A stretch of DNA of 64,000 nucleotides from a virus. The DNA is taken from IMG/VR virus record IMGVR_UViG_3300034198_013268, positions 1-64,000 of that record. One strand, 5' to 3'. The notes below the pieces were generated by a model. It did no database searches. It had not been told where the DNA came from and saw only the letters and a program-made list of their open reading frames with translations. Position numbers and translations under genes: made by a program. Shown here one piece after another: positions 21,227 through 47,551 of the stretch; the stretch's first letter is position 1, and the number at the start of each line of letters is the position of its first letter.

Positions 21227-21342
21227 TATTTCCATCGGCTACGTGGTGCGGAGGCGGGTTTTAGTGCTGCAATACCGGTCAATGCTGCTAACCAATAGTA
21301 GCCCACTTGCCTAACATGCGGGCAAACGTAGAAAGGCTTCAT
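21226..21342 (-). CDS. 38-residue coupled small protein
   Basis: ATG at 21342 overlaps the stop of the gene before it (TAATG), and its own stop overlaps the ATG of the giant gene (TAATG). The product begins [12 protein letters not shown], has a short hydrophobic middle ([13 protein letters not shown]) and a basic end (PRSRWK). The double overlap is the main evidence that it is translated. It may mainly pass ribosomes on to the giant gene. Function unknown. Confidence 0.5.
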
Positions 21343-21536
21343 TATTTTTTTGTGCCTTTTTCCAAAATCCATGTTGGATTATTTGAGAGAATTATTGACA
21401 AATTAAGTATTCTGCTTTTTTCTTTGGCTGACTCGATAAAACCCCAGTACACAGGATTGTCTTCGGTTCCCATATTTATGGTCGCGCGCATTTTTTCTGT
21501 GCCATCAGGGGTTCTCGCTATTACTTTAGGTCTCAT
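21342..21536 (-). CDS. Small hypothetical protein between giant genes
   Basis: The product is 64 residues beginning MRPKVIARTPDGTEKMRATI. ATG overlaps the stop of the 1238-residue gene (ATGA). It is beta-rich at first (ATINMGTEDNPVYWGFI) and then helical. No family is recognised. It belongs to the coupled chain of genes between portal and capsid. Confidence 0.55.
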   Translation of the reverse strand: MRPKVIARTPDGTEKMRATINMGTEDNPVYWGFIESAKEKSRILNLSIILSNNPTWILEKGTKK

Positions 21537-25249: not shown

Positions 25250-25254
25250 AAGCC

Positions 25255-25644
25255 CTACTTCATGCCAAAGTGATATGTATCCCAATCGCTAAGCTCAATT
25301 TTGTGTTTAGCGCAATAGTCTTGGATGGCTTCATTACGGGTCATTGGTGACTGCTTGTAATCTTGTGCTTCCATTATTTCTTTGGTGTATTCGGGCAGTA
25401 TTTTAACTACATTGAATACCATTTTTTTTTCAAGAAAATCTTCTTCATTTTCTGGTGTGCCGCGCATGTTTAGCGCATCAAGATAGTCAATCATTAATTC
25501 TTTTTTTGAAGACAAGCAGAAAGGTGGATATTCGGCCAGAATTTGAGCATCCTGGAACCCAGCGTTCCATGTTTTTTTTGCTTTAAAAAAAGCGGCTTTA
25601 TTTGCAGCGCTTAATGTTTCTGGGTTTACAAGTTTTCTTGCCAT
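25255..25644 (-). CDS. Hypothetical helical protein between giant genes
   Basis: The product is 129 residues: MARKLVNPETLSAANKAAFF and onward, helical, with one Cys pair. It begins three bases after the stop of the 2228-residue gene. Its 3' end lies just before the ATG of the 1238-residue gene, so the three are probably translated in series. No domain is recognised. It could be an assembly partner or an immunity-like companion of a neighbouring giant protein, but nothing shows that. Confidence 0.6.
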   Translation of the reverse strand: MARKLVNPETLSAANKAAFFKAKKTWNAGFQDAQILAEYPPFCLSSKKELMIDYLDALNMRGTPENEEDFLEKKMVFNVVKILPEYTKEIMEAQDYKQSPMTRNEAIQDYCAKHKIELSDWDTYHFGMK

Positions 25645-25646
25645 TT

Positions 25647-28600
25647 TTATTGCCAGTCCCTATTTCTAATGTGTGGGATTTGCTGACCGTCAGGCATTCT
25701 CCAGTTTCGCAGTGCATCACGGGCACTTCCAAGGTTCCATGTATGGTTTGATTGGGCGATGCCGCTTCTATTGAGTACTCTCACAACGTTACCATTTCCC
25801 TTTCCAGTATTTGGATTATTTGGATTTACTCCAATCAAGCTCTTCCACAGCTGACTTGGAATTATATCTCTTTTATCTAGACCGTCGCTGGATAATCCCT
25901 TAGGGGTAATGATTGCATCAACCCCCATCATTAGTGCCCAGTTTTCTGGAGCCAAATATGTCAGTGTATGAATTGCTCTATCCAGTTTTTTGTTATGTTC
26001 AATTGCGTCTTTGCCCGCTTGGCCTGGTTGCGAAATGTCTTGTCTTTGTGACGCAATCTGAACCACATAATTGAGTGTTTGCTCAATCCATGCGTTAAGT
26101 TTTTGTCTGTATTGAGCGTATTCCACTTGCTCAGCTGGCGATGCTCCAGAAGGGGGAAATAAGCCGGACATTATGGAGGAAGGAACTGACCATCCTCCGC
26201 TAGTTATTCCTTCTACTGTCATCGGTCCATCAGTGGTTGTAAGCCTGTCTATTTCACTTTGCAGACCGTTGGTATCTATCAAACCAGTTACTGGGTCAGG
26301 GGCAAATGAATTGGGTGCAATGTTAAAAACTCTTGTATCACCATGTCTACTATTTACGCCACCAGGAAAACCTGGAGCTCCAATTGCGTTGACAATAGAC
26401 CAAATTCCTTCATAAGTAGCGGAGTTTTGTCCAAATAATCCATCAAGAACTTCTGCTGACATTATGCTTTCTTGAGATATTAAACCAAGCGTCGTACCAT
26501 CAGTTCCATGCATTTGACTCCAGCTTACTGGTACGAGAGACCAGTATTCTCCGCGCCCGTGTTGTGACATTCCTTGACCAGGAATAAAACGCTCTCCATT
26601 AAGACTTTCTTGAGCCAGCTGTCCAGCAGTGTATTGAACACCTCTCGACCAACTATCGTTTACTCCTCGAGCTATGATTAGGTGAGTTGGGTTTCCATCG
26701 CTATCAACATTGGTAGCCATTTCTTCTAATTCTTTGTCTGAAAGAAGAACTGGTTTAGAGTTAAATCCACCCCATTCCCACATGCTTCCCATCATCATTG
26801 CGTCAGTGTCATGAAACTCTCTACCAACAAGGTCTGGATGTCCTGCTACCGAACGATTGCCGGCCTTGTACTCCTTATATGCTTCATCCATTAAAGCAAG
26901 CGCATCGACATGTTCGTCAGATATTTCGTCAATAATTACAGCACCCGTTGTCGGGTCTACTTCTGGAGCATTAGGAAACCCATCAGCACGATGCTGCTGG
27001 ACAAGTTCTGTTATTTCTTGTGGACTTCTATTGGGTTGGTTGCTTATTGGAAGTCCGCCATGAGGGTCAAGAACAAACGGGGCATCATCAAAAAACCCAA
27101 AGTCTTGCCGTGTGCTTGTTCCCGACGCTTGTCTGGCACGACGAGCAAGTATCTGCCTATTGAGTCTTTTTGCAACTGATTCTAGGTCTTGTCTCTCTGC
27201 TAAAGTAACCGCATCTCTTACGTCCGGGTCGTGGACAATGTGAGTATTTAACAAATTCTCCATCTGTTCCATCACGTTTCCGTTTGCCACATACCTCAGA
27301 AGAGCAACCCTATTGCCAGGCGACATCATGTACGTTGCAAGGTCTTGTTCCATTTTATTGGCAGTATAAGAATGAACACCCCTAATTGTTTCAAGGGTTA
27401 TCTTCCATTGTTTGTCGGCTTGTGCTCGAAGAGAGTTTAGTTTAGCTTGGTCAATAGGCCCAATCCAGCCTTGTAGGACACCTATTGCTTTAGTGTCGTT
27501 ATTTTGAAGTGCTTCGGCTACGGCGCGTGTTACGTCTTCTAGTTGAAGTGCGGCATTCATGCTTTTTATTGCATCAAGATGTAATTGTCCAAGCCCAGTT
27601 TGTCCGTTATCTACAAACATGTCGCCATCAGGAGTGTAGAATCTTCTATGCGGCATAAAAGGGTCCATGCCTAGTTCTCTTATGTCTTGAAGGGACAGGT
27701 TGTCATTAACGGTTGGACGTGATGACCCACTTGACGTATCAATGCGCGAAGGGTTTGCCTCATTAGTTGGGTCCATCGGGTAAGGACGGAAAAACCCATT
27801 ATCCATACGAGAATCACCGGCTGCTGCAATTACGTCAGCATAGTTACGGTCTACCGATAAACCAGCAAGCGTTCCGCCATTTGGGTCAGAGAAGTCAACT
27901 TTTACAAGTCGTGGAAATTCCTCATTTCTTCCTCCTTGAGCGGTTTTAGTTGCATCAACGGCTTCGTTAAATGTGGGGATTACATCAGTTATTTGTTTCA
28001 CCGCACGGGGGTCAGTCGTGATTTCTAACGCCGGGTTGTCTGCAGAAAGGTCTACACCTGCAGTAATGCGCACATACTGCTTGGGTCTTATGGCCGGGTT
28101 GACCGTGATTTGCAATTCCGGAAAATCTCTGTATCGCCCAGTGGAGGGGTCTACTTCTGGAATAATACTTCTGTCGTAAACGTCAAGAGCAGATGGTTCA
28201 AGACCTGATAGGTCCTCAACGTATAGTCCAGTATTGTTGTCAATGTAGCCGTTTGGCATATAACTAATATTTAACGCTTTGTTTCCTACGCCCGGGTCTA
28301 GCGATGGCCCTGTAATTACTCGCGTTGCTACTCCAGGTGCTTGTGGTTTAATGTCATTAGGACGTACCCATCCTGGTGTACGTACTGTTGCTACTGGTTG
28401 GTCATATATGCCAAGACTTTGCGCAAGACCACCAGAAGAAGACGGTGTGGGCTTATGAGGAGTAAAATTACGTTTTTTCTTTCTATCCACTCCGGTCGGT
28501 ATTCCAACATCATCTATGATTGAGTTTCTTAGTGATGGTTTTAAGTTGTTTACCAAAAAGAAATCGTTACTGTTTTCCCATTCGGATAAAACAAGTAGGT

Positions 28601-31600
28601 TATGCAAGCTTCCAGACCTAATTCCAGAAAGTCTTGGATTTGATTTTTTTAAGTCTTCAAGATAATCAAGAGCTGCATCTTCACTTATTGGGTCATTGGG
28701 TCCAATTTTGAGATGACTTCTCCACTCTGCTCTAAGTGAATCTAGGCTGGTATGGAGGTTTCTGTTTATTCCATCTACAACATGCGCGGGATAGGTCTTG
28801 CTTGGGTCAAGGAAATCACCAGTTGTTGTCTGTGGATACGTTAGTCCGCTTCTTGCCTTGGACCTTTGCACTCCACGCGATGCCATTCTTTGAGGCTGTC
28901 TAGAGGCTGGAGCTTTCTTTAGTCCGCGTTTTCTAAATTTTCCAGTGAGTCTTTCTGTAAATGTAGACTTTTTAGGCTCGTTTATTATCTTTTCCCGCGT
29001 TGACTCTCCAGCAATAAGCATCATTAGCCTGTCGCCTTTGTTGTCTACGCGTTCAACTACAGACAGAAGGTGCTGACCATCTTCTCCTATTATGTGGGAT
29101 GACCCACTTACGTTATCAATAACCATAACTAGGGGTTTATGGTCTTGCCTGTCGTCGTATACGTAAACTTTATCGTCCATTTCGCGGACAATTGCATGGC
29201 CAAGGTTTGATGGAGAACCAGGAACATCAGGTTTAGAAGGGTCGTTCAGGTCGCGTAGCGCACTGTTATATACCTCGCGCAAGTCATCCTGATGTTCGTT
29301 ATCAAAGTCCGTTAAGTAAGGAGTGAATCCTCCAATATTCCTTAAGGCATTATTAAGGTCAAGAATTCTTCCATAGTTATCTGGGTTATCCCGCCATTCA
29401 TTTTGGTCAACTATTCCAGGAGTTGGTACAAATCTTAATTGTTCCAGTATGTTGCTCGGGTAAAGTTTCCATATATCGCGAGGGGATGTTGCTTCTTCCG
29501 CTCTTGAACTAATCATTGGCAACTCGGACAACGATTGAGGAATTGTTATTTTCATTCCCTCTGGAACGCCCTCGTTTCTAATGTCATAACCAACACGGGC
29601 TATTCTTTTAGCCAATCTTATTCTTAAGTTGTCTGTGGGCTTTGGCATTCTTCCTTGTTCAAGGCGTTTTGCTGCAGCAGATTCACGTGCCCATTGGCGA
29701 CCTTCGCCGCTCATCCAGCGAGAAATTATCCCTGGAACTTCTGGTTGGTCACCTCTAATATCACGTCTTATCGGACGCGTATTTTTTCTTTTTGATTTAT
29801 TACTCCACCAGTTCCCGTTGCCGGTATTGATGAATTCATCAAGGTATTCTCTGCCCTTAGGAGAGACAAACTGTCCATCAGTATGACGGCCCAAACTCAT
29901 TTGCCCGGTTATGCCAGTAGAAGTTTTACCGGTAACAACGTTATGTTCTATGTCTTTTCCGCCGGAGTACGGAGCTTGGCCGTTCATCTCCATGGCCAAC
30001 ATGTCTCCGTCACTATCTAAGACCATTGCAAGATGAGAGGCCACACCAGTACTGTATGGGGACGTTACTGGTTCAAGCAAATCATCACGACCGACCAAGG
30101 GTCCCACCATTCGGTCGTCTAATGCCGTGACCGTTGTCGAGTTGTAACGCTTAGGGTCTACCCAGTATTGCGCCATATCAATTGAAACAACATGTTTTTT
30201 GCCGTCTGTGCCAGTCACTATGCGCAGAGACATTTCTTCACGTAAGATTCTTTGTTCTTCAGTTTTACCGTCAGACAGCGTGACTACCCTGTAGTTGCTT
30301 AGTTCTATGCTTGTATCCGCAGGAGAAGGTAGGTCACCCGACGGAAAATGTCTATACAAACTGACGTAAGCCCCCCTATCAGGTGCGGTTGGGTTTCCGG
30401 AAAGACCATACCCCTCTATCCCGTTAGCCAATCCTCGTTCGGCAGACACCACGACGTCTTCACCGGGGTCAAACCCGGAATCCAGTATTATCTGGTCGAC
30501 TAGACCTTTAAACATCTCCCACTCTGGAGTTGGTTCTCCTATTTTTGAAGGGGAATAAAATCTTACGTTAGCGGATATGTTTTGCTCTATATTGGAAATA
30601 GCATCAGACTCATCAACATTAATGTTTTTGAAAAAATCGTGAAGGTTTGCAATTTCGCCAGCAACTTTATTTTCTTTTTTTGATTTTTTATCAACGCGGC
30701 GTCTGCTTCTTCTTGTTTCGCCATCAGCAAGAGGGTCAAGAGAAAGGATGCGCCCTGCCCAGCCCTTTCTTTTTTGTTTGACCGTATTGCTTAACGGGTC
30801 AAATGTCAAAATAGTCTTTGCAATATTTCTACGTCTTGACGGTTTTAGTGAGCCCCCATTGAACGCGTCGTCAATGAGGACGTCCTCGAATGCGTAGTCA
30901 ACCCAAGCATCTGCAAACTCTTTATTATCTCCGCTTACACGACGTATGAATTTTTCTGCTTTTCTACGATTTTTAAGAGTGTCGTCTGCGTGGTCGTATT
31001 TGCCATTAACTTCCAGGCCAAGAGCATGTAATTCTTCCCAATCGGATGGGTAAAACCGAACACCCGTATCCATGTCGGCCCAGTCCCCTGTGCCGTTGAG
31101 AATATCTTGCCAAGTATATGAGCGAGTCGCGGCACTAAGTCCTGCAAGCATTTCTTCTTGAGTAAGAAACTTAAATTTTTCTTGTTCTCCAGATGGTGTA
31201 CCGTTGTGTTTTTTGGGCGACCCAAACCAAGGGTTGAGCGTCATTGCTCCGGTTTCGTACAGTTGTCCGGCCATAGGATTAAAGTAGATGGGAAGGTTTT
31301 CGTCCCACACGCCACCCTTATCACGAAGCTCTTGAGAAATTGTAATTTCTGGTTTTACTTTGCGTGCTCTTCTGCCGCCTTCGGACATGTCAATAAAACC
31401 ACGCTGTGCAATATCTTGCCCAACGCGCGACATGCGTAATCCTGCTGCCGTTCTTGCCCGTGCAACCATTGGGGCATTTGGATTAAGTGCGCTATACGTA
31501 TTTCTAAAAGAAGGATTTAATTGGCGGTCGGTCGCTTTTCTTACTCTTCTTTCAGAACGTTTTGTAAATTTTTCAACTCTCCCGGCCCGCACATTGTCAG

Positions 31601-32333
31601 CGGTTCTTTCGGTAAGTCTTCCAGCACGATACAGCGCTCCACGAGGCTCAATGCCTGCGTTGAGTTCGTTCTGACTTCTATCATCTATGGATTGAAGGAA
31701 TTGACCAAGTCGACGAACCGCACCCATAGAGCAGCCGAGACCGAGCCTGTTAGTAAACTGTCCACCATTTAACGTATCTTCAGGGCACCGCCAACCCTGC
31801 AGGTCAGTGTCCCATATTGCCCGCATTCCTTTGACTTGAAGCGTAAGGCTAGATAGTTGCTGCTCGAGCTTAAAGGCTTTTGCCTTGTAAGTTACAGCAT
31901 GCTGCTTATAAGCCACATCCATTGATGCAATCAAAACATCCGTTACTGGAAATGAATAAACTGGTTCAAAGTCTTCAACATCGTCTGGCTCCCCATAGAC
32001 GTCTTCTGGCGTATCAGATTTTGTTTCCACAATCTGCAGGAATGATTTTTTTTCAAATTCTTCACTTAGTCTCAGGGCCTCCTCTGGGGAAACAAGCTGA
32101 GACAATTCACCCAAATCTACAGCATTTGCTTTTTTGGGTGATTCGACAAATAGGCTTATATCAAGAGAATTAAAAAGTTCTTCATTTGTGAACTTGGAAG
32201 AGTTAGCCCATGTAGCCCATCGCTCGCCCTGTCCATGTGCGCCAAAAGCACGCATATCACCATTGGGGCTTGTTACTAAAAGAGCAAAGGGCTTACCGTC
32301 TATTTTGTCTTTTACGACTGAAATAGTTTTCAT
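25647..32333 (-). CDS. Giant protein of 2228 residues with C-terminal ADP-ribosyltransferase-like domain
   Basis: ATG overlaps the stop of the 687-residue gene. Residues 1-60 are a beta-rich head (FALLVTSPNGDMRAF). Residues about 178-201 have WRCPEDTLNGGQFTN...GCSMG, a Cys motif shared with two neighbours. A basic segment (260-310) precedes a long region of unknown folds. One junction motif (GITGQMSLG) lies near 806. The C-terminal part, about 1850-2050, looks like an ADP-ribosyltransferase: GFNSKPVLLSDKELEEM, the ART Arg in IIARGVND near 1888, and HGRGEYWSLVPVSW near 1925. The final catalytic Glu is not assigned. ART domains are common phage effectors; activity here is not demonstrated. Confidence 0.8.
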   Translation of the reverse strand: MKTISVVKDKIDGKPFALLVTSPNGDMRAFGAHGQGERWATWANSSKFTNEELFNSLDISLFVESPKKANAVDLGELSQLVSPEEALRLSEEFEKKSFLQIVETKSDTPEDVYGEPDDVEDFEPVYSFPVTDVLIASMDVAYKQHAVTYKAKAFKLEQQLSSLTLQVKGMRAIWDTDLQGWRCPEDTLNGGQFTNRLGLGCSMGAVRRLGQFLQSIDDRSQNELNAGIEPRGALYRAGRLTERTADNVRAGRVEKFTKRSERRVRKATDRQLNPSFRNTYSALNPNAPMVARARTAAGLRMSRVGQDIAQRGFIDMSEGGRRARKVKPEITISQELRDKGGVWDENLPIYFNPMAGQLYETGAMTLNPWFGSPKKHNGTPSGEQEKFKFLTQEEMLAGLSAATRSYTWQDILNGTGDWADMDTGVRFYPSDWEELHALGLEVNGKYDHADDTLKNRRKAEKFIRRVSGDNKEFADAWVDYAFEDVLIDDAFNGGSLKPSRRRNIAKTILTFDPLSNTVKQKRKGWAGRILSLDPLADGETRRSRRRVDKKSKKENKVAGEIANLHDFFKNINVDESDAISNIEQNISANVRFYSPSKIGEPTPEWEMFKGLVDQIILDSGFDPGEDVVVSAERGLANGIEGYGLSGNPTAPDRGAYVSLYRHFPSGDLPSPADTSIELSNYRVVTLSDGKTEEQRILREEMSLRIVTGTDGKKHVVSIDMAQYWVDPKRYNSTTVTALDDRMVGPLVGRDDLLEPVTSPYSTGVASHLAMVLDSDGDMLAMEMNGQAPYSGGKDIEHNVVTGKTSTGITGQMSLGRHTDGQFVSPKGREYLDEFINTGNGNWWSNKSKRKNTRPIRRDIRGDQPEVPGIISRWMSGEGRQWARESAAAKRLEQGRMPKPTDNLRIRLAKRIARVGYDIRNEGVPEGMKITIPQSLSELPMISSRAEEATSPRDIWKLYPSNILEQLRFVPTPGIVDQNEWRDNPDNYGRILDLNNALRNIGGFTPYLTDFDNEHQDDLREVYNSALRDLNDPSKPDVPGSPSNLGHAIVREMDDKVYVYDDRQDHKPLVMVIDNVSGSSHIIGEDGQHLLSVVERVDNKGDRLMMLIAGESTREKIINEPKKSTFTERLTGKFRKRGLKKAPASRQPQRMASRGVQRSKARSGLTYPQTTTGDFLDPSKTYPAHVVDGINRNLHTSLDSLRAEWRSHLKIGPNDPISEDAALDYLEDLKKSNPRLSGIRSGSLHNLLVLSEWENSNDFFLVNNLKPSLRNSIIDDVGIPTGVDRKKKRNFTPHKPTPSSSGGLAQSLGIYDQPVATVRTPGWVRPNDIKPQAPGVATRVITGPSLDPGVGNKALNISYMPNGYIDNNTGLYVEDLSGLEPSALDVYDRSIIPEVDPSTGRYRDFPELQITVNPAIRPKQYVRITAGVDLSADNPALEITTDPRAVKQITDVIPTFNEAVDATKTAQGGRNEEFPRLVKVDFSDPNGGTLAGLSVDRNYADVIAAAGDSRMDNGFFRPYPMDPTNEANPSRIDTSSGSSRPTVNDNLSLQDIRELGMDPFMPHRRFYTPDGDMFVDNGQTGLGQLHLDAIKSMNAALQLEDVTRAVAEALQNNDTKAIGVLQGWIGPIDQAKLNSLRAQADKQWKITLETIRGVHSYTANKMEQDLATYMMSPGNRVALLRYVANGNVMEQMENLLNTHIVHDPDVRDAVTLAERQDLESVAKRLNRQILARRARQASGTSTRQDFGFFDDAPFVLDPHGGLPISNQPNRSPQEITELVQQHRADGFPNAPEVDPTTGAVIIDEISDEHVDALALMDEAYKEYKAGNRSVAGHPDLVGREFHDTDAMMMGSMWEWGGFNSKPVLLSDKELEEMATNVDSDGNPTHLIIARGVNDSWSRGVQYTAGQLAQESLNGERFIPGQGMSQHGRGEYWSLVPVSWSQMHGTDGTTLGLISQESIMSAEVLDGLFGQNSATYEGIWSIVNAIGAPGFPGGVNSRHGDTRVFNIAPNSFAPDPVTGLIDTNGLQSEIDRLTTTDGPMTVEGITSGGWSVPSSIMSGLFPPSGASPAEQVEYAQYRQKLNAWIEQTLNYVVQIASQRQDISQPGQAGKDAIEHNKKLDRAIHTLTYLAPENWALMMGVDAIITPKGLSSDGLDKRDIIPSQLWKSLIGVNPNNPNTGKGNGNVVRVLNRSGIAQSNHTWNLGSARDALRNWRMPDGQQIPHIRNRDWQ

Positions 32334-35143: not shown

Positions 35144-35491
35144 TTAAATTGAGGAATTGCGGAATATGTCTTTCACCCCAAGGTGTAGTCCATTTATAGC
35201 AACGTGTACCTTTTCATTATAGGGGTTGTACTCTTCCTCAGGCATACCATCGAGTCCTGTACCAAAGTATTTATCTCTCCACTTTTGGTCATCCCAGCGT
35301 TCCGACCATAACTCCTGCTGAGTGGTTGTAACTTCTAGTTTTTCAAGGTCCGACCTGTTGTGGGCAAAATCCCAGAAAGGAACTACGGTTTCTTTTGAAC
35401 CTATTTTTACTACTCCATTGTAGTCAATGGCTCCTGGAACAAAATAGAGGGTTGAGCCATCTCCAAATTTGCCAACAAGTACTTTTTTCAT
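35144..35491 (-). CDS. Hypothetical protein following the 1731-residue gene
   Basis: The product is 115 residues; ATG overlaps the upstream stop by four bases. It begins MKKVLVGKFGDGSTLYFVPG, is beta-rich first and then acidic and Trp-rich. No domain is recognised. Tight coupling suggests it works with the 1731-residue protein. Confidence 0.6.
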   Translation of the reverse strand: MKKVLVGKFGDGSTLYFVPGAIDYNGVVKIGSKETVVPFWDFAHNRSDLEKLEVTTTQQELWSERWDDQKWRDKYFGTGLDGMPEEEYNPYNEKVHVAINGLHLGVKDIFRNSSI

Positions 35492-38400
35492 GCTGAAGTA
35501 CTCGATTTCCTTGAGTTGAGTACTCTTTCCATCTCTTGAGCAATTTTTTCTTTTATTTCATCCTGAAGATTAAGACGGATTGCTTTTTCCGCATCCGCAG
35601 ATTTTGGCGCTCTTGAATTATGTGTGCTTGGGGAAAATACGTCTAAGCCGGCCTGGTTTTTAACGGTTAGTCCAATCCCCTTGCCGTCAAGATATTCTTT
35701 AAAATTCTTTGCAGCCATGAATGTTTCTAGTCTTTTCATGTTTTCGGGGATGTAATTAGCTTCACGGAGGTTTTTTACAGCATCTAGTTTTGCCGAAGAT
35801 GTAATGCCCATTTTGAGTATTGCATCATCAGAAAGAGGGTCTTCTTTAAAATTGGCAAAAGACTTAGGTATAGCGTTGTAATCTATAGCTACGTGTTCTA
35901 TTTCTTCTGGTTTTACACCGCCGAGGGTTAAGGACTCCATGGGTGCGTGTGTTCTCTCTGTAATTTCCGAACCGTCCGTGTTTCTGCCAGGACGAGTTCT
36001 GTGCGCAGAGAAGTCTTTTTTCCATTTTCCGTAAAGCATTTCAAGCGGGCTTATGTTCCATGTGTCATCGGATTTAACGCCATCGTGCCCGGAATGTATC
36101 AATGCTTGCTGTATCAGCTCAGAGTTATCTGAGTTCATCCCAACAGGTCTAATGTGGTCATTTACGGCATCTCCGTACCCATAAGAGGTTCTAGCAGATA
36201 CCTCTGGTCTTAATGTTAACTCAACGTCTCCGTATGTATCTACTCGGCCGCGAACACCATTGGTAGAGGGGGCAAATTCTGGGCTATACCTCTGCGGGTC
36301 AGTTCGTCCTGTTTGTGTCAATCGGTCAGCAGAGTCTTTCAACTCACTTTCAAGCCAGTCTTGATGAACTACATGACCGGAGATTGGACGCATTTCTTCT
36401 GGGGTGTCTGGGTGGATACCAATCCAGGCTTCATATTTTTTGCGAATGTTGTTTCCTGTAGCGTTTTTTCTAGCAACTCCAGAATCAATAACGTTTTTTA
36501 TAGATGCGGAAGGAACTTGTATGCGCACGCGAGGGTCTATGCCGGCGTGAAACTCATTTGCTGCAATTCGAACATCCCTAGCTAATGCTTCTTCGCTTGA
36601 GTTGGCTATGTACTTCATGAAATCAGGGTCGAGTCCGCTTAGTTCGTTTAACATCCCACGGTCAGGGCCGTCTATGTTTGGATATCTATCGCTTGGGTGA
36701 ATGGGTGAAACATTTTCACCATTTGCTAAAGCCTTGATGTGAGATATTCTCTTTGTCAAGCTGTCTGCATAAGGAGTTCTGCGTGTCTGTAGTGTCTGAA
36801 CTGGGAGGGTTGAAGCACCACGCAAAGGACCGTTTATCTCATCTGCATACTTTGTACCTACGTCAGTTCCAAATGAACCACCTTTTTTAACGATGGCTTC
36901 TTTGGCATTTTCATTTCTTTGTGCAACCGACGATGCTGACATTTTCCCAGAAATATTCGAAGAAATTGGCTCGTTTTCGACAGAATCAATTTTACTCCCG
37001 GCGTGAAAACGACGTAAATCATTGTTCCATTCAAATACGTTTAACCCCACTTGCGGCGTGCGCATAATGCTGGATTCAGGTATTTCATATTCAGTTATTT
37101 TTCCGCCAGCCTCTGTGTAAGCTTCGTCAAATGACTTCTTTTTATCTGTATTTCTAAGCTTTAAGAATTTTTTAACATCAAGAGTTGAGTCGTCATGTTT
37201 TACCCCTACTAAACGGCCATTTTTATTAACGTGCTTGCCACGTTCTGCTGCTACCTTGAGGTCGTCTACTGTTTCTCTTGAGACAAATACGGTGTTGTCA
37301 AAAATTGATTCAGCACCTTTTTCTCCATCATTGGTTATTGTCGTTCCAGTAACTGGGTTTTTTTGACGATGCAGTTTTCCGTCAGGCATTAGAGAGTATT
37401 TTGAACCATTCTCCGTAGTGAATGACTTCATTTTTCCAGAAACGCCTTGTTCGTAATTGGCCATTTCTTTTTCATAGCGCTGCATATCGTCTTGATATTG
37501 TTTGCGTTTTTGTTCAACTATTCTTGGAATAGAATCAACATCAAGTAAACCTTGAGGAGTGTCCGGGTTAGTAGCGGCTCGTTCAAGTATGCGCTGGACA
37601 ACCTCTGCGGAAGCAAGTGCATCGGCGTCTGCCGTATGCCAACCACTTCCAAGGTTTACATCAAGATATTCAGCTAAAGGACCCAGGGAACTTGAGGCTT
37701 TTTTGGTCCCATCTTTTGCTACCTGTACGGGTCCGTCGGGGTTTTCTGGAGTCCATCTTGGCAGTAGCTCATCTGAAAGCGCTTTGCTGTCTATGACTCC
37801 AGCAGGAGTAAAACTCATGCCTTCTTGTGCAAGTACCCTATTGAGAACTTCTAGGTCAAATGGAGTGTACTGACCGCCAAGAATAGGGTTTTCGCCCATG
37901 AATGCAATAAGTTCTTCGTGTGCTTGTTTTATAGTTTTTTGCTGTGCAAGGTAAGCATCCGTAAGTGGTTCTTGAAGGTCGTTTTTAAGATTTCCTTGAG
38001 CCCATTCTCCCAATGGGATACCTGGATTCATAAAGACATTAAATCTATCTATGACTTTCCCACCACGCATACGAACAGCGCCAAGCTGTACAGGCATGTT
38101 TCCATCGGCACCAAATCCTGTAGTTTCGTAATCAAAGTAAATAATGTCTAGCTTGTTATATCTATCGAGCATCTCTTGATAGCTTTTACACCCTCTAAAA
38201 ATGTCAATTAGAGAACCCGTCATTGGGCCATTATCAGGCTCTCTTGGGCGCGTTGGCTTTGATGCCATCTTCCCAACTATCCCACTAGAAGCGGTCCTGC
38301 GTTTCTGTTGGCTATTTCTGTTTACGGCACTTCTGACCCTATTTGCGTGCAGTGAGTCTCTTTGAAGTTGTTGACCGGTACCCATATGCCCGGAAATATT

Positions 38401-40683
38401 CCATTGACCTGGTGATATGCCATTCATCCGCTGGCCGATGTCGTTTATTTCCCCGCGTATGCGTGGTTCTTCTGCGGCAACATGTGCCAGCCATTGACCG
38501 TGCAATGCATGTGCTGGGCTCATTGGTACAAAATTTTCGCTTGGGTATTTTTTTCTGTAGCTTGCTTGTAATTTTGCATCAATAAAAGAATCAACAATGT
38601 TTTTTGTTCCAGCTTTTTGAGGAACTGGAACTACTGGTTGACTACCGCCAAGCTGCCCTCTCAAAAGTCTACTGATACCCATGCTTGTTTTTGGTCCAGT
38701 GCTTGGGTCCATGGTTGACTCGCCAAAAAGTCTCATAGTTGCAAAGTACTCTGCTCTTGCTTCTACGTTATTTGATTTTGCATAATCGCCACCGGCAAGT
38801 TCTGCCATTACTGCATGTTCTTCAGGAGTTACGTTAATGTTGTTAACAAAAGCATCGGTGAAGTTATTATGAAAATTAGCAAGGTCTGTTTCTAGGTCTA
38901 TTCTTCTATGACCAACTCTTCCTCCTGTATAATTGCCAGTTTGAAGATTAAATGCAGCCTGCCTAATGGCATCAATACTTGGATGATTCATCGGATTTTG
39001 TATTTTTGACAAATCGATTTGCCATCCTCCAACTTCTACGTTGGGCCTTCTTGAAGTAGCAGGACCTGCTGGGTTTAATGTTCTGAAAGCTGGGTTAATT
39101 CCACCATTTGGCAAGATTCCGTACCTGGTAAGTTGTTGATTATCTAGACCAAGAGCATTTAGTTTATTGCCAAAATCCAGCAAGTGTCCAAACTCGTGAG
39201 TTGCTAGATAATGAGCTTTCCCTTCAAATGAGTGAAGTCTGCCGCTGGCATTGTGAAACTGATTATACGCACTGTTTTCACCTCTGCAAAAAGCAAGCAG
39301 AGCGGCTGGGTTTATCTCCATCGTTACATGGACTCCGCCTTGGGCTGCCGAGTTGGCTTTTTTTGCTGCTGCTGTTGCGGCTACACCCGCAGACCTTCCG
39401 CCAGAAAGAATGCTCGGGGCAAAAGGTTTGACGCTTATTGCAACTGCAGTAGAAGAATCACCATCTATTTTATCAACGATGCTTAATCTTGTCATCCATC
39501 TGGCTGCATCTGGATTATTGAGCATTTCATTAATTTGCCCTTCCCAGAATGTTGTCATTATTTTTTTAGCTTGTCGGTGTTCAAAAAAACTTAACCCGCC
39601 AGGGAGGGCATTTTCAAATGCTTCGTCTATTTCGTTTGGGTCGACATTGGGCAAAAGTTGCGTCATGATATTCATGAAGTTCTCTTTTATTGATATGTCG
39701 CCAATCTCATGATAAGTACCGCTAGCATCAGGAAAAAGCTGTTTTAAACGTTGTCTGCTAATTCCGCCTTTGGGAGCGTCTCTAGCATCTCCAGTAAATT
39801 GATAGTGTAGGTGTTGCGCCTGGGAAGTCAGGATTCTCCCGCGTAGTATTCTTTCTTGTTCCGACAATTTATGGCTAGTTACGCCAATTACGGAACCCTT
39901 AATGTTTTTTCTTTGTTCCCTTGAACTCCCTTGCATTGCTCCAACAATGCCGTACTCGCCCAGTGCTGTTCTGATTCTACTTCCAACAGGCATCGAAGCC
40001 ATTATTGATTCAAGTTCTTCTGGAGCAGCTATCCTTTCGCCCGAAGCGCTATAACGTGTAACGTTTGGCCCCCCATTTTCTATTCTGTCTCCGATTTGCC
40101 CTGACATTTGAGCAGAAGCGGTCATGCCTCTACGAACTGCTCTTCTTGCTGAACCTGCGGCTGTTTGTGGTGTAACAATAAAGCAGTTACTGCCCGTTAT
40201 GTCGGTGAACTGGTTTGCTGCTGGAGTCCCTGGAGGGCAGCGCAATTTATTCTTGTCATCAACCCATAGTCCTCGTCCTTGCGCTACTCGGCTAAGTAGC
40301 GTGGGCATGCTTTCTTTTAGCTTGGGGCCAAGTGATTTAAAATCAAATTCATCGAGACTTTTAAATGATGGCGATTTTCTATTGCGCCAAAACTCATCAG
40401 TAACATAGTTTTCATATTCATGAAGTTCGTTTGTACCAGCTTTGCAAAGAAATAGGTTCTTGCCTGGCGGTACAAGCGGTATCGGGTCGCCTTGTTCCCA
40501 CGTTTTTATGTACTCTTCGTATGGATTGGCAAAATTGGATTCTTTTTCAGCACCTTCTTCTTTTTTGGAAGACGGTGGAGAATCTTTTTTTATTTCATCA
40601 GGCACGCTCTTGACTAACGACCCATTATTGGCCGCAAATCTTTTTAGTGCTTTATTAGCAAATGAATCTTTGTCCCAGCTCAC
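35488..40683 (-). CDS. Giant protein of 1731 residues: zincin metallopeptidase, DEDDh exonuclease, shared C-terminal domain
   Basis: Residues about 147-167 have LRCPPGTPAANQFTD...C. Near 494 is the zinc motif HEFGHLLDFG, and NVEARAEYFATM near 640 would give the third ligand; this pair is typical of zincin peptidases in phage polyvalent proteins. A DEDDh exonuclease (DnaQ type) spans about 840-1030: FDYETTGF, GQYTPFDLEVLNR and HTADADA. A domain at about 1480-1610 (YGDVELTLRPEVSAR, LTLGGVKPEEIEHV) resembles the C terminus of the 1238-residue protein. Junction motifs lie near 761, 800, 1079 and 1242; the one at 800 directly precedes the exonuclease. Probably packaged in the virion, acting on host proteins and DNA, by inference. 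Confidence 0.82.
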   Translation of the reverse strand: MSWDKDSFANKALKRFAANNGSLVKSVPDEIKKDSPPSSKKEEGAEKESNFANPYEEYIKTWEQGDPIPLVPPGKNLFLCKAGTNELHEYENYVTDEFWRNRKSPSFKSLDEFDFKSLGPKLKESMPTLLSRVAQGRGLWVDDKNKLRCPPGTPAANQFTDITGSNCFIVTPQTAAGSARRAVRRGMTASAQMSGQIGDRIENGGPNVTRYSASGERIAAPEELESIMASMPVGSRIRTALGEYGIVGAMQGSSREQRKNIKGSVIGVTSHKLSEQERILRGRILTSQAQHLHYQFTGDARDAPKGGISRQRLKQLFPDASGTYHEIGDISIKENFMNIMTQLLPNVDPNEIDEAFENALPGGLSFFEHRQAKKIMTTFWEGQINEMLNNPDAARWMTRLSIVDKIDGDSSTAVAISVKPFAPSILSGGRSAGVAATAAAKKANSAAQGGVHVTMEINPAALLAFCRGENSAYNQFHNASGRLHSFEGKAHYLATHEFGHLLDFGNKLNALGLDNQQLTRYGILPNGGINPAFRTLNPAGPATSRRPNVEVGGWQIDLSKIQNPMNHPSIDAIRQAAFNLQTGNYTGGRVGHRRIDLETDLANFHNNFTDAFVNNINVTPEEHAVMAELAGGDYAKSNNVEARAEYFATMRLFGESTMDPSTGPKTSMGISRLLRGQLGGSQPVVPVPQKAGTKNIVDSFIDAKLQASYRKKYPSENFVPMSPAHALHGQWLAHVAAEEPRIRGEINDIGQRMNGISPGQWNISGHMGTGQQLQRDSLHANRVRSAVNRNSQQKRRTASSGIVGKMASKPTRPREPDNGPMTGSLIDIFRGCKSYQEMLDRYNKLDIIYFDYETTGFGADGNMPVQLGAVRMRGGKVIDRFNVFMNPGIPLGEWAQGNLKNDLQEPLTDAYLAQQKTIKQAHEELIAFMGENPILGGQYTPFDLEVLNRVLAQEGMSFTPAGVIDSKALSDELLPRWTPENPDGPVQVAKDGTKKASSSLGPLAEYLDVNLGSGWHTADADALASAEVVQRILERAATNPDTPQGLLDVDSIPRIVEQKRKQYQDDMQRYEKEMANYEQGVSGKMKSFTTENGSKYSLMPDGKLHRQKNPVTGTTITNDGEKGAESIFDNTVFVSRETVDDLKVAAERGKHVNKNGRLVGVKHDDSTLDVKKFLKLRNTDKKKSFDEAYTEAGGKITEYEIPESSIMRTPQVGLNVFEWNNDLRRFHAGSKIDSVENEPISSNISGKMSASSVAQRNENAKEAIVKKGGSFGTDVGTKYADEINGPLRGASTLPVQTLQTRRTPYADSLTKRISHIKALANGENVSPIHPSDRYPNIDGPDRGMLNELSGLDPDFMKYIANSSEEALARDVRIAANEFHAGIDPRVRIQVPSASIKNVIDSGVARKNATGNNIRKKYEAWIGIHPDTPEEMRPISGHVVHQDWLESELKDSADRLTQTGRTDPQRYSPEFAPSTNGVRGRVDTYGDVELTLRPEVSARTSYGYGDAVNDHIRPVGMNSDNSELIQQALIHSGHDGVKSDDTWNISPLEMLYGKWKKDFSAHRTRPGRNTDGSEITERTHAPMESLTLGGVKPEEIEHVAIDYNAIPKSFANFKEDPLSDDAILKMGITSSAKLDAVKNLREANYIPENMKRLETFMAAKNFKEYLDGKGIGLTVKNQAGLDVFSPSTHNSRAPKSADAEKAIRLNLQDEIKEKIAQEMERVLNSRKSSTSA

Positions 40684-40701: not shown

Positions 40702-40947
40702 CTAGACTGCCGGCTCTGTGCTGTTGTCCTCTGGCGCTGTGTTTGCTTCAGCTACTACAACTTCTTCGACTGCGGCCTCTACGACCACAACCTCTTCAGC
40801 TACGGCAGAAACAGCTTCTTCCACTACTGCAACAACAACTTCTTGAGTTTCGGCTTTTTTACGCTTTTGTTTTTCTACTGGAGCAGCTTGGGCTACGGCC
40901 TGTGATGCCTTTTTAGCTTCGCGTTCTTCAGGGGTGAGTTTTCTCAT
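40702..40947 (-). CDS. Low-complexity Val/Glu/Ala-rich small protein
   Basis: The product is 81 residues, start coupled to the scaffold-like gene (overlapping at 40947). A basic N terminus (MRKLTPEEREAKKASQ, KQKRKK) is followed by a strongly acidic, repetitive stretch of V, E and A (VVVAVVEEAVSAVAEEV). This would form an extended amphipathic helix. Such charge-split proteins occur among scaffold accessories, but no family is recognised. Confidence 0.55.
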   Translation of the reverse strand: MRKLTPEEREAKKASQAVAQAAPVEKQKRKKAETQEVVVAVVEEAVSAVAEEVVVVEAAVEEVVVAEANTAPEDNSTEPAV

Positions 40948-42840: not shown

Positions 42841-45171
42841 TTATTCTGCCCAGTTTGACAATAAGTTGGTAGTTGCATCAATCGCGGCATTGCTCATCTG
42901 AGATACTCCAAGAATTTTGATTCCGTCTTCTGTGACGAGAGACTTAATGGAGTGGTATCTTGCCACTTCTTCTAGACACGACTTTGCTTCAAATAGGTTC
43001 TGTATGTCAATCGGGAAAAGAAAAGCATCTAAATCCTGAGTTTCAAATTGAAACCCCGACTTGACGTGAAGGTCAGCAGACTCAGAAATAGAAACATAAA
43101 TCTCTGATTTTCTACCATGTAGTTTTTTGGGCGACATAGGCGGCATGCGGTTATTTTTGTATTTTTCAAACGGGTCATCGGGTGGTTCACCGCCACTGCC
43201 GCCAGCGGCCGCCATTGGACGTGGTTTTTCCACAAACGAGGCCGGAAGTCTTTGCGGAACACGCTCAGGAACTGGCCTTGACGGTGCTGGAGCTGGTGTA
43301 CTAGGACGAGACGGCACAGGGCGCGGGATTGGTGTTTTCTCTGGCACTTTCTCCGGAACCTCAATTGGCTCATCTGTCTTAGGCATGCGAGGAGCAATTT
43401 TTCTTGGAGCAGGAAGATTGTCGAGACCAGTGGGTCCTGTAACAAAACCGTCACTATCTCCGTCGTATTTTGCTGGTTCCACTCGTACGGCGGCTCTAGC
43501 ACCACCAATTGTTTGTCTTGCTTGTCGAGGTAGCGCTTTCTCTAAGGCGTCCAGGGCACTAACTACCGCGTTAGATGCTTCATTTCCATACCAGTCAATG
43601 TTAGGGATAGCAAAGCCATCACTAAGAAGCTCTACAGTGAATCCGTGATGAAAGCCTATTTCATTAGCCGCCTCAAATGACTCAATATCATCAGATTTAA
43701 TAAACATATGGATTCCAGGGTTTTCAGACTTAAAATCATTCCAGGAAGCCATTGGCGTTGAAATGCCGCATGAGCCGCCGCATTCTCCACCACAAGCACA
43801 GTCCGACTTTTGCCCACCACATGCGCCGCCACAGCCACATGAACCATGGCTTTCTTCGTGCTCTTCGTGGTGGGAGTCATTTATTGGCATGTATACAACT
43901 TCAGCCCTAACTGGAGTTGCTGCCCCAAACATAAAATCAACACCATTGGGAGTGTGATAGCTGCCGCGAAGTGTTTCCGTGTGCCCATCTCTGGTTAAAT
44001 CAAATACAACAATATTTTCTTCAGCGCTTCTGATTACTATTTCTCCACCAAAATGAATGCTGATATTTTTAGCAAGAGCACCCATTCTGCCCGCTATAGG
44101 GTTTTGCCCCACTTCACCAGGACTATAAATAATTTCGTCAGTTTTTTTAAAGATTCTTCTGCCCATACCCCAAAAAAACTTTTCTTCTTCGTTGTCGGGA
44201 AATTCTTTAGCATTGCTGTATTTTTTTAAAAGGTTTCTTCCTTTTTGTGCCAGCTTTGCTGCATCTTGAGCGTTTTTGGGTACTGGCTCTCCCCATGCTG
44301 CGGCAGATAGCGCCAGTCTTGTCGGTTTGCCATCGTCGCCAACCATTGGTCCTGATGGGTTTGTAAAAAACCGAGTCAGGAACGAACCCTTGCGACGCAT
44401 TTTCTCAGGGGTGTTTGCAGGCCCCTTTACGCCTGGCTTAAGATTTGCTCCCTCAGTTCGTTTAAAATACTTTCTTCCGGCTGCCGTGAGGCCGCCATCT
44501 GGGTCCTTGAGTGGTTCGTCGGCGCTCTTTTGGCTGCCGTCAATAGGAATGCAATTAGGAACCATCTTGCCATCTTTGCCTGGCTTCATGCCCAACTGTT
44601 CGTAGCCGGGCCAGCATGGTCCAGAATCTGCAGCTTTCTGCTCGTCAGATTTGATTGATAGCGTGGCTGTTAGTTGATTTGCTCCATGCAGAACTGGAGA
44701 AACTTCGTATAGCTCAACTTCTTTAAGGAGATTGGCTTGTTGACTTGAGTCAAAAACGGCATCAAGTGTTTTGTACCCAATTGACCACTCTTGCTCTTCC
44801 CCAAAGAAAGCAACGTTTGCAAAAGCTTCGCGCCCTTTCTCGGCAGCAAGGTTAAATTGTACTCTTGCAAAAAGTCCGCCAACGCGCTTTTCTCTCATTT
44901 TTGCTGGAAGACGAGGGTCGTTTGGACCAACCTCGTATATCTCAAGAACTTTACCAATTGGCTCATTCCAGTTATGTCCCCAGACAACGCGAGGCTTACG
45001 GCGCTTAAGCGATGAACTAAAGCATCCAGGCAAACAAATGTCACCAACGCTGTCTTTGTTTCCCAATGCTGCCACAAAACATTCAACTAAACCCTGGGCT
45101 TGATTTACGTTTACTTGGCCAGGGATGGACTTGTACAGAGTTTCAGTAAAGTTTGATGTCTGAAATGACAT
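42841..45171 (-). CDS. Prohead protease (S78 type) fused to further head domains
   Basis: The product is 776 residues, with AAAGGT upstream. Residues 1-170 are an HK97-type prohead protease: His66 in VVWGHNWNEPIGK, Ser130 in EWSIGYKT and Glu156 in ELYEVSPVLHGAN. A short GPCWPGYEQLG...NCIP region follows. Residues about 225-330 contain KMRRKGSFLTRFFTNPSGP and LALSAAAWGEPVP, a DUF6321-like domain. Near 437-475 is a His/Cys-rich stretch (SHHEEHEESHGSCGCGG, CACGGECGGSCG) that probably binds metal. An Asp-rich DGDSDGFVTGPTG and a long Pro-rich linker lead to a helical C terminus. It should cleave capsid, scaffold and perhaps the giant proteins. Confidence 0.88.
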   Translation of the reverse strand: MSFQTSNFTETLYKSIPGQVNVNQAQGLVECFVAALGNKDSVGDICLPGCFSSSLKRRKPRVVWGHNWNEPIGKVLEIYEVGPNDPRLPAKMREKRVGGLFARVQFNLAAEKGREAFANVAFFGEEQEWSIGYKTLDAVFDSSQQANLLKEVELYEVSPVLHGANQLTATLSIKSDEQKAADSGPCWPGYEQLGMKPGKDGKMVPNCIPIDGSQKSADEPLKDPDGGLTAAGRKYFKRTEGANLKPGVKGPANTPEKMRRKGSFLTRFFTNPSGPMVGDDGKPTRLALSAAAWGEPVPKNAQDAAKLAQKGRNLLKKYSNAKEFPDNEEEKFFWGMGRRIFKKTDEIIYSPGEVGQNPIAGRMGALAKNISIHFGGEIVIRSAEENIVVFDLTRDGHTETLRGSYHTPNGVDFMFGAATPVRAEVVYMPINDSHHEEHEESHGSCGCGGACGGQKSDCACGGECGGSCGISTPMASWNDFKSENPGIHMFIKSDDIESFEAANEIGFHHGFTVELLSDGFAIPNIDWYGNEASNAVVSALDALEKALPRQARQTIGGARAAVRVEPAKYDGDSDGFVTGPTGLDNLPAPRKIAPRMPKTDEPIEVPEKVPEKTPIPRPVPSRPSTPAPAPSRPVPERVPQRLPASFVEKPRPMAAAGGSGGEPPDDPFEKYKNNRMPPMSPKKLHGRKSEIYVSISESADLHVKSGFQFETQDLDAFLFPIDIQNLFEAKSCLEEVARYHSIKSLVTEDGIKILGVSQMSNAAIDATTNLLSNWAE

Positions 45172-45277: not shown

Positions 45278-47551
45278 TTAATCTACGCTAAAACGAAGTT
45301 TACAGCGGCAGTTCATAGCCAGGTGAGGCGGAGCTAACGGGTCGCCAGGAAAACGAAGTTCTCCATCATCGAACGTAAATGCACCAGATACAGGAATACT
45401 CTTTCCTTCAAGAAGTCTATGCTCCCCACGTACTTTTGCGTCTTTACGAGTTGCCCATGTTTTAGACGATGCTCCCACTTGTTTTGCGCCAAAGTAAAGG
45501 CCGGCGTTATATGAGCTTTGACCTTCGTGTTCCGCCATTACTCTTTTCTTTTTGGAAAGAAGATTGATAAAAATTGCCGCAAGAGCAGCTTTCAGCATCC
45601 CAATCTTGTCTTCTTCGCTAGACAGCGCAGAAGAAATTAATATTGCCGAAGCAACCTCATTGCGGGTTGTGTCGTTTGCTTTGCGTGTTCGCTCTATTTG
45701 AGCATCAAGAAATTCTTTAACTTCTTCTTCGTCCATCTCTATTGGCATAGATGTCTGCTGATTAACCAAACCAGAAGCGTCCTTAACTATCCCTGAATAC
45801 ACAGGACGAAGGTCTTCTTCTATTTGCTTATTCCAAACATTGATATCAAAAATAGAATCAACTTCAAGATTTCCGGCTTCTATAGCTTTGCGAGATTTTG
45901 CTCCACTGGCTTTTTCCATAACAACGCGTTGCTGTCTTTCAAAAAAACGCTCTAGGTTTCTATCGAGTATTTCTGTCCAGCTATCGGCACTTTGGTCTGC
46001 TTTTGTTTCCCACTCCGATATTTGTGACCATTCTGCAGTTTTGGTACTCATACCGCCCTGGTCTGCTGAAAGGGCACTAGGAGACCCCTGAGGCATGTTT
46101 GCTGCAACACTTTGCTGTTGTGTGGCCTGTTCTGCCATTAAAGCTGCGGTCATTCCTTCCGCTGGAGATGCTTGTCCTGTGGCGTCAATCATTTGAGGCA
46201 CGGCTGGAGGCTGCTCTCCCGGTGGCGGCACTGCACCTTCGGGTCCTGCTGGCATTGCTCCGGCAGCTGCTACGCCAGGCATTCCTGGTTGCGGTGGGGG
46301 CTGTGCAGTTGAATCAAATTTCTTATCCGTATAACCAATTGGAGTCAAGTTAGGGTTGGCTAACATTGCTTGCATTAAATCAGAATCAATATGCTTACGA
46401 CCTGTTTGCATTCTGTATTCATTGCCGCTAATTAAACCGTTTTGGAATTCATCAAGCAAATAGCGTTCGCGCTCCTGCTTGTACAAAATGAGGATAGGGA
46501 CTTCAGATGTGTCAAAGTCAATGTAGTACTCGTCGTCCAACTCATCAAGGGCACGACCAATCAATTCCATGTGGGGAAGCATTGTTTCGTTCCAGAAGAC
46601 GCGATGTTCTTCTGCGGCGTTTGAGAATGTTCGTCCTGAAGCATTGCCGATTACTGATTCTGGGACACCAAACGAAGCAAGGATTTCTTCTTTTGTAATC
46701 TGGCGCATTTGGATGTAATTTGCGTCGCGAGGGCTAGCACCGGTATCTACGTAATCAACGCCTTCATCTGAAGAAACAACAGTAATTGAACCAGCACGGT
46801 TTACGTTTCCTCTAAACCTGGCGCGAAGTTCATCCTTATCATCGTCATCAATTTCACCGCGAACAACAATCATTCCACCCGGACGACCATCATTTAAAAG
46901 GAAGTTGCGGTTGTATGTCTTGGATAAGTTTTCAATTTCTATTGCTATTCCAGCAGACTCCAAGGGGGTCAGGGAGAGGTAGGGGTCAAGGGGGTGAGGC
47001 TTGCGAACCCAAATAACGTCTTCCGGTTTTAGGTATATTTTTGTCCCATTGCGCATATCGACCTCAAAGCCGGATACAAATGTTTTTGGGTCAGGGATGG
47101 GTGCCGTATGTTGGGGCGGTAGAAGCTGCAACGCAATAATAGAGCCATCTCGGCCTCGCACTTTCTCTATGAATGCTCCACGGGAAGACATGAGTAACTG
47201 GGAAGATAGTCGATAACGGAATATGAATGAGTTCTCAGCCATATTGGCTTTGGAGTTCAAAATGTCAAGGATTTTATTGTCCTTATTATCTTTGACAATT
47301 TTTCCGTGGGGGGAGTTGTCGGCACGCAAGATAGCTGGAAGACGACTCTGGTTGCCAGCAATAGCATCGATGCATCGGTTTACCCATGTGACCTTTGCCA
47401 TTCCCTCTCTGTAGGCGCGTTCTATGTCCCAAGAATCTTTGTACGGGCGTCCAACCATGCCTGTATTGAAGGCAACAGGCGCACCAGGCGTCATGATAGA
47501 TTTAGCTTCCGAGTTACCTAAAGACTTATTGCTACTTGAGTTCCATGCCAT
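45278..47551 (-). CDS. Portal protein fused to MuF-like domain
   Basis: The product is 757 residues. Residues about 40-430 match HK97-family portals: WVNRCIDAIAGNQSRLPA, LLPPQHTAPIPD, EDVIWVRKPHPLDPY, LTPLESAGIAIEIENLSKTYN and ILASFGVPESVIGNASGRTFSNAAEEHRVFW. A Pro/Gly/Ala-rich linker (about 425-500) follows. The C-terminal 100 residues are a Mu gpF-like domain: TWATRKDAKVRGEHRLLEGK, RFPGDPLAPPHLAMNCRC. The dodecameric portal forms the packaging and exit channel; MuF domains are virion proteins carried in small number. In many phages portal and MuF are separate genes, so this is a fusion. Confidence 0.9.
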   Translation of the reverse strand: MAWNSSSNKSLGNSEAKSIMTPGAPVAFNTGMVGRPYKDSWDIERAYREGMAKVTWVNRCIDAIAGNQSRLPAILRADNSPHGKIVKDNKDNKILDILNSKANMAENSFIFRYRLSSQLLMSSRGAFIEKVRGRDGSIIALQLLPPQHTAPIPDPKTFVSGFEVDMRNGTKIYLKPEDVIWVRKPHPLDPYLSLTPLESAGIAIEIENLSKTYNRNFLLNDGRPGGMIVVRGEIDDDDKDELRARFRGNVNRAGSITVVSSDEGVDYVDTGASPRDANYIQMRQITKEEILASFGVPESVIGNASGRTFSNAAEEHRVFWNETMLPHMELIGRALDELDDEYYIDFDTSEVPILILYKQERERYLLDEFQNGLISGNEYRMQTGRKHIDSDLMQAMLANPNLTPIGYTDKKFDSTAQPPPQPGMPGVAAAGAMPAGPEGAVPPPGEQPPAVPQMIDATGQASPAEGMTAALMAEQATQQQSVAANMPQGSPSALSADQGGMSTKTAEWSQISEWETKADQSADSWTEILDRNLERFFERQQRVVMEKASGAKSRKAIEAGNLEVDSIFDINVWNKQIEEDLRPVYSGIVKDASGLVNQQTSMPIEMDEEEVKEFLDAQIERTRKANDTTRNEVASAILISSALSSEEDKIGMLKAALAAIFINLLSKKKRVMAEHEGQSSYNAGLYFGAKQVGASSKTWATRKDAKVRGEHRLLEGKSIPVSGAFTFDDGELRFPGDPLAPPHLAMNCRCKLRFSVD

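What the first reader, a model, noticed from the sequence alone, without database searches (positions are those of the whole stretch)
35488..40683. Zincin peptidase and DEDDh exonuclease in one head-operon protein
The 1731-residue protein has HEFGHLLDFG near 494 with a matching downstream Glu motif near 640, and a complete DEDDh exonuclease at about 840-1030. The exonuclease follows directly behind the junction motif GIVGKMASK. A packaged peptidase plus nuclease could disarm host defence proteins and degrade DNA at once after ejection. The peptidase could alternatively be the enzyme that processes the giant proteins.
Basis: partly seen in the sequence, partly recalled or inferred. Interest (0 to 1): 0.68.

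Follow-up and report, generated by a model that had tools for sequence, protein, structure and literature searches.

The report
Phage cargo polyprotein with peptidase, exonuclease cassettes
A giant protein encoded among a freshwater phage's head genes carries an intact peptidase and an intact nuclease as separate cassettes, joined by a short repeated peptide motif that looks like a cut or swap site, so the phage probably ships a modular toolkit into its host rather than one fused enzyme.

Summary
The gene at 40683-35488 (minus strand, 1731 aa) encodes a zincin-type metallopeptidase (HEFGH at 496, NNVEARAE at 638) and a complete DEDDh exonuclease (849-1028, above Pfam's cut-off). It lies between the prohead protease and the major capsid protein. 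The DEDDh residues are invariant in 16 of 16 relatives and the zinc ligands in all that could be scored. HExxH sits at the same place in 77 of 77 assessable loci of a 152-member family, so the zincin is core and the exonuclease an optional cassette.

What looks new is the junction. The motif [IV][STV]GxM occurs 19 times in the window's giants (0.5 expected) and R[LF]SSG 18-24 times in a sister clade. Each clade uses only its own motif. The exonuclease always lies junction to junction, even when it sits in another protein, and homology blocks end at junctions four times more often than chance.

I read it as a head-packaged precursor of cassettes cut at the junctions. Cleavage, the cutter and virion presence are inferred.

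The parts
35488..40683 (-). 1731-aa polyvalent-type head-operon protein (P0001)
40180..40242 (-). hyperconserved Cys tag RCPPGTPAANQFTDITGSNCF (residues 148-168), shared by both clades
39934..39951 (-). junction GIVGAM (245-250)
38401..39933 (-). zincin module (residues 251-761)
39184..39198 (-). HEFGH zinc-binding motif (496-500)
38749..38772 (-). third-ligand motif NNVEARAE (638-645)
38383..38400 (-). junction NISGHM (762-767)
38266..38283 (-). junction GIVGKM (801-806)
37600..38139 (-). DEDDh exonuclease domain (849-1028)
37429..37446 (-). junction GVSGKM (1080-1085)
36940..36957 (-). junction NISGKM (1243-1248)
35491..36939 (-). C-terminal module; a separate gene in the SSG clade; weak fold match to ADP-ribosyltransferases
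42841..45171 (-). S78 prohead protease (+DUF6321), candidate cutter of the junctions
45278..47551 (-). portal protein with C-terminal MuF-like domain
8519..9868 (-). HK97-type major capsid protein
10193..21235 (-). 3680-aa giant with eight junction motifs and NUDIX, DnaJ and zeta-kinase modules
21533..25285 (-). 1250-aa giant with three junction motifs and DUF3626
25647..32333 (-). 2228-aa giant with one junction motif and a Cys tag

Best explanation
P0001 is a polyvalent-type cargo precursor made with the head proteins and probably packaged with the DNA. It is built from independently folding cassettes: a Cys-tag N-terminus, a zincin metallopeptidase, a DEDDh 3'-5' exonuclease, a short module and a DUF3626-like C-terminal module. 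Short lineage-specific junction peptides separate them (xISGKM-type here). Most likely these junctions are cut by a phage protease during or after head assembly, so that peptidase, exonuclease and C-terminal enzyme act as separate products in the host. The cutter is either the S78 prohead protease next door or the zincin itself. Shown here: domains, conserved active sites, operon position, cassette boundaries, clade-specific motifs. Inferred: packaging, cleavage, the cutter, injection and substrates.
For: Active sites are invariant across relatives. The order portal-protease-494 aa-P0001-...-MCP is shared with G001, and with small changes in the SSG clade. The junction motif occurs 19 times in the window's large ORFs against 0.53 in shuffles and 0 in the other ORFs; the SSG clade has R/E[LFM]SSG 18-24 times and no ISGxM. 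The motif is a property of the genome, not of the cassette: the same exonuclease is flanked by GIVGKM/GVSGKM here, TRFSSG/TRFSSG in G012 and RMSSG/GLSSG in G013. All 14 exonuclease copies with both flanks start 47-65 aa after one junction and end 231-247 aa before the next, measured from the DYET motif. Homology blocks end within 10 aa of a junction in 24.4% of cases against 5.5% at random (maximum 7.8% in 500 trials; n=626, not independent). In the window and G001, junction codons are nearly as varied as the background, which points to the protein level. The C-terminal module is fused here but a separate gene in G008, G011, G012 and G013, so it works unfused. Precedents: Iyer et al. 2017; cleavage of P1 DarA by its prohead protease (PMC12810830).
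Against: No proteome was available for any of these phages, so neither packaging nor cleavage has been seen. The MCP boundary (DV[YF]SALP[ST]GT) is the same in both motif clades, which does not fit an S78 protease whose specificity changed with the junctions. In the SSG clade some junction codons are biased (TCT-TCT), so DNA-level exchange may maintain part of the motif. Cultured Gordonia phages carry zincins without repeated junctions.
Confidence: 0.5

Rival explanations
1. The junctions are not cut. They are recombination seams or flexible linkers that let phages swap cassettes, and P0001 works as one uncleaved multi-enzyme protein.
For: Cassettes move between proteins exactly at junctions. 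Serine codons of the SSG clade are biased to TCT. Phage N4 virion RNA polymerase is packaged uncleaved although it contains a zincin.
Against: In the window clade and G001, codons at junctions are mostly as diverse as background, so selection acts mainly on the peptide. Shared cassettes carry the motif of the genome they sit in. Modules also occur as separate genes.
Confidence: 0.3
2. The zincin of P0001 is the protease that cuts the giants at the junctions.
For: HExxH is present in all 77 assessable loci, so it is the core module of this protein. The zincin type (HExGH against mostly HExAH/HExSH with a Q after it) and the junction motif change together between clades. Iyer et al. propose this role for polyvalent zincins.
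Against: The co-change is effectively one phylogenetic contrast. Cultured relatives keep zincins without repeated junctions. In the SSG clade the S78 protease is itself the first cassette of a junction-rich giant, which makes it an equally natural cutter.
Confidence: 0.25
3. The zincin and the exonuclease are host-directed effectors that act together immediately after ejection.
For: Both active sites are intact in all scored relatives, and the genes lie in the head operon next to other likely effector modules.
Against: The two modules are not linked in evolution: the exonuclease is missing, moved, or in another protein in many lineages. No substrate and no virion evidence.
Confidence: 0.2

Closest known systems
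Polyvalent proteins of phages and conjugative elements (Iyer et al. 2017, PMC5512222)
   Same: Several unrelated enzyme domains in one polypeptide, a zincin as hub, location among late/packaging genes, and the published proposal that the zincin either processes the protein or attacks host proteins.
   Different: A text search of that paper for 'exonuclease' returned one hit, in its reference list, and for 'linker' none, so no DEDDh cassette and no repeated junction motif were found described there. Here several giants per genome share one clade-specific junction motif.
Phage P1 Dar proteins (DarA, DdrB)
   Same: Head-associated, packaged and injected; DarA is cleaved by the prohead protease and DdrB is processed before packaging.
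   Different: No sequence match was sought or seen; P1 is not described in these texts as using a repeated junction peptide.
Head-operon zincins of cultured Gordonia/Brevibacterium phages (GMA6 Orf14, Gray gp27, DalanDe gp21-22, Cantare gp11)
   Same: HE[IL]GH and a Y-x-x-T-N-x-x-E-x-x-A-E-x-W-A third-ligand segment like YAKSNNVEARAEYFA; genes between portal and capsid.
   Different: Separate genes of 742-1040 aa without repeated junctions; profile similarity to the window zincin is only suggestive (17% probability).
PolC-type / DnaQ-like DEDDh exonucleases
   Same: All five catalytic residues and the H-x4-D spacing; best PDB matches are PolC exonuclease domains.
   Different: Carried as a portable cassette between junction motifs inside a head-operon protein, not in a polymerase.

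Membership tests
Polyvalent proteins | two or more biochemically unrelated domains in one polypeptide | tested here: met
   Zincin motif plus DEDDh plus DUF3626-like module
Polyvalent proteins | encoded with portal/terminase packaging or late genes | tested here: met
   Between the portal-MuF/S78 protease genes and the major capsid gene
Polyvalent proteins | packaged and delivered into the host | not testable with these tools
   No virion proteome for any relative; GMA6 mass spectrometry results are in a supplement that could not be read
Zincin metallopeptidases (polyvalent MPTase clades) | HExxH plus downstream Glu, conserved in relatives | tested here: met
   16/16 for HExxH and 15/15 for E641 and E645
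Zincin metallopeptidases (polyvalent MPTase clades) | zincin fold | tested here: inconclusive
   Top VIA rows are zincins (lethal factor peptidase domain, PPEP), Z 5.2-7.5, on a model of mean pLDDT 53; no significant Foldseek match in the PDB
DEDDh (RNase_T / DnaQ-like) exonucleases | family profile above cut-off with D-E, D, H-x4-D | tested here: met
   PF00929 35.9 bits against 24; residues invariant in 16/16
MuF-fused phage toxins | MuF domain in the same polypeptide | tested here: not met
   No MuF in P0001; MuF is on the portal protein
Substrate of the S78 prohead protease at the junctions | junction resembles and co-varies with the MCP scaffold boundary | tested here: not met
   The MCP boundary is constant while junctions differ between clades; only a loose [hydrophobic]-x-S-G likeness

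The most novel reading that the evidence does not exclude
A lineage-specific peptide punctuation code: each phage clade marks every cassette boundary in all its giant head-cargo proteins with one private motif, read by a co-evolving phage protease, so that enzyme cassettes can be gained, moved and released as separate injected effectors. This would be a phage counterpart of viral polyproteins, with motif-typed cassette exchange.
Probability: 0.4. Interest if true: 0.8.

Novelty: new variant of a known kind. Interest (0 to 1): 0.52.

Why it matters
If the junctions are cut, these phages deliver a multi-enzyme payload as a polyprotein in their heads, and the motif gives a ready way to parse thousands of unannotated residues into functional modules. 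Head-operon giants of this kind are common in environmental viral contigs (152 relatives found) but nearly invisible to annotation. The clade-specific motif makes a long-standing proposal, that polyvalent proteins are cut into units, directly testable by virion mass spectrometry.

Tried and rejected
1) Internal translation starts at the Met of xISGKM: rejected because the SSG clade's motif has no Met and the GG before ATG lies too close for a Shine-Dalgarno site. 2) S78 sites co-varying with the MCP boundary: not seen. 3) Pfam, NCBIfam and PHROGs for the zincin and the C-terminal module: no match. The PADLOC hit to 'DEDDh, CRISPR-associated' is a generic exonuclease match, not evidence of CRISPR. 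4) Foldseek in the PDB for the zincin: nothing significant; BFVD: one hit to an uncharacterised phage protein (E=9e-5) and a 'Lethal factor' fragment from a siphovirus at E=0.05. 5) C-terminal module fold: low confidence (pLDDT 50); VIA rows are ADP-ribosyltransferase folds at Z 5.0-7.1, a lead only. 6) A host or prophage in genome contigs: none. 7) Zincins of the two clades are not detectably alike outside the Cys tag. 9) The 687-aa neighbour has no match in the phage collection.

Full report
Observation. The window is part of a 73,421-base IMG/VR virus record. The gene runs on the minus strand from a GTG at 40683 to 35488 and encodes 1731 residues. HEFGH is at 496-500 and NNVEARAE at 638-645. 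The RNase_T profile covers 849-1028, above the curated cut-off. Motifs D851/E853, D943 and H1016-x4-D1021 are complete. The best solved relatives of the exonuclease are PolC exonuclease domains.

Relatives. A first scan gave 11 loci at about 35% identity; a scan on the exonuclease profile added a more distant clade; a scan with both clades found 152 relatives, 80 of them kept. In 77 of 77 loci long enough, an HExxH lies at the expected place. In the type-A zincins (window clade) HExxH is invariant in 16 of 16 and both downstream Glu in 15 of 15. All five exonuclease residues are invariant in 16 of 16. The exonuclease, in contrast, is optional: in type-A loci it is found at about residue 800, 1220, 1810 or 2300, and was not found in L113 and L116. 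In G013 it lies in the prohead-protease giant.

Fold of the peptidase. AlphaFold2 on seven sequences gave a partial model (mean pLDDT 53; blocks around the HExxH helix 70-80). Foldseek found nothing significant in the PDB. The second-look aligner ranks zincins in all eight top places, the lethal factor peptidase domain first (Z 7.5, 3.9 A over 153 residues), then PPEP enzymes and small zincin-like metalloproteases. At this Z and confidence that is support, not proof. HMM profiles do not link it to the zincins of cultured actinophages beyond the third-ligand helix.

Context. Reading downstream on the minus strand: portal with MuF domain, S78 protease, a 494-aa protein, P0001, several smaller genes, giants of 2228, 1250 and 3680 aa, then the HK97-type capsid protein. 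The closest cultured portals and capsids are from Streptomyces, Brevibacterium and Gordonia phages; their head operons also hold large proteins, zincins and a VIP2-like ADP-ribosyltransferase between portal and capsid genes. An actinobacterial host is likely, but that is inference.

The junctions. [IV][STV]GxM occurs 19 times in the window's large ORFs (0.53 in shuffles, none in the other ORFs) and 18 times in G001. In G008, G011, G012 and G013 the equivalent is R/E[LFM]SSG, 18-24 times, with no ISGxM. Cassettes common to both clades carry the motif of the genome they are in. Measured from its DYET motif, the exonuclease cassette starts 47-65 residues after a junction and ends 231-247 before the next in all 14 copies with both flanks. 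Between lineages, homology blocks end within 10 residues of a junction in 24.4% of cases against 5.5% at random (the ends are not independent, and alignments tend to stop in linkers anyway). Two consecutive cassettes of G012's P0001-like protein match two consecutive cassettes of the window's 3680-aa giant, and the C-terminal module of P0001 is a separate gene in the SSG clade. Codon diversity at window and G001 junctions is close to background (three positions with p about 0.03-0.04), so selection is mainly on the peptide; in the SSG clade a TCT-TCT bias leaves room for DNA-level exchange.

Mechanism. The best reading is a packaged precursor of cassettes cut at junctions. For the cutter there are two candidates. 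For S78: it is expected in the head, and in the SSG clade it is itself the first cassette of a junction-rich giant, so release at the junction would free it. Against S78: the capsid boundary DV[YF]SALP[ST]GT, which aligns within a few residues of the HK97 gp5 cleavage point, is the same in both clades while junctions differ. The HK97 gp5 sequence used was written from memory; one search gives the independent database alignment. For the zincin: it is universal and its type changes with the motif; against it, this is one contrast, and cultured Gordonia phages have zincins without junctions. I leave this open.

Known or new. Polyvalent proteins (PMC5512222) already explain zincin-bearing multi-enzyme proteins of the phage head and already carry both hypotheses for the zincin. 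I file it as a new variant of a known kind.

Limits. No proteomics, no activity data, one structure of low confidence, and metagenomic contigs only. The two motif clades were chosen because they share the exonuclease or the Cys tag, so the number of independent motif changes is not known.

Noticed in passing
window 40180-40242, 32330-34393 (residue 132 of the 687-aa protein), 25647-32333 (residue 182): A Cys tag of the form RCPxG...(N/G)xFT(D/N)...C recurs near the N-terminus of three different head-operon proteins, and in P0001-type proteins it is nearly invariant across both clades (60% identity over 42 aa). It could be a packaging or targeting signal.
   Followed up: partly
G013 (L077-L078), G008, G011, G012: In the SSG clade the S78 prohead protease is the N-terminal part of a 3055-4740 aa giant with 13 or more junctions, which also holds an ArdC-like zincin (HELVHWTGHS) and, in G013, a stretch resembling a UvrD-type helicase (helicase by eye only).
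   Followed up: partly
window 35491-36825: The C-terminal module of P0001 gives weak fold matches to ADP-ribosyltransferase folds (SopF, DarT1; Z 5.0-7.1) on a low-confidence model.
   Followed up: partly
L113, L116, L119: These relatives carry two HExGH motifs (about 452 and 1050-1057) in one protein and use LTGAM/LSGxM junctions.
   Followed up: no
L088 (Gordonia phage GMA6 Orf14): A zincin (HELGHTVGN) and an HNH nuclease (PF01844) occur in one head-operon protein of a cultured phage: a similar peptidase-plus-nuclease pairing with a different nuclease.
   Followed up: partly
window 40947-42431: The 494-aa protein has a 70-aa stretch (388-456) that in cultured Gordonia phages lies at the end of the capsid maturation protease just before the capsid gene.
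   Followed up: no
L004/G001 P0001 residues about 800-1180 and L030/G012 residues about 2720-3270: A further cassette (HETSY...NHLVGGHIFRQ) sits between zincin and exonuclease in one clade and far downstream in the other; function unknown.
   Followed up: no
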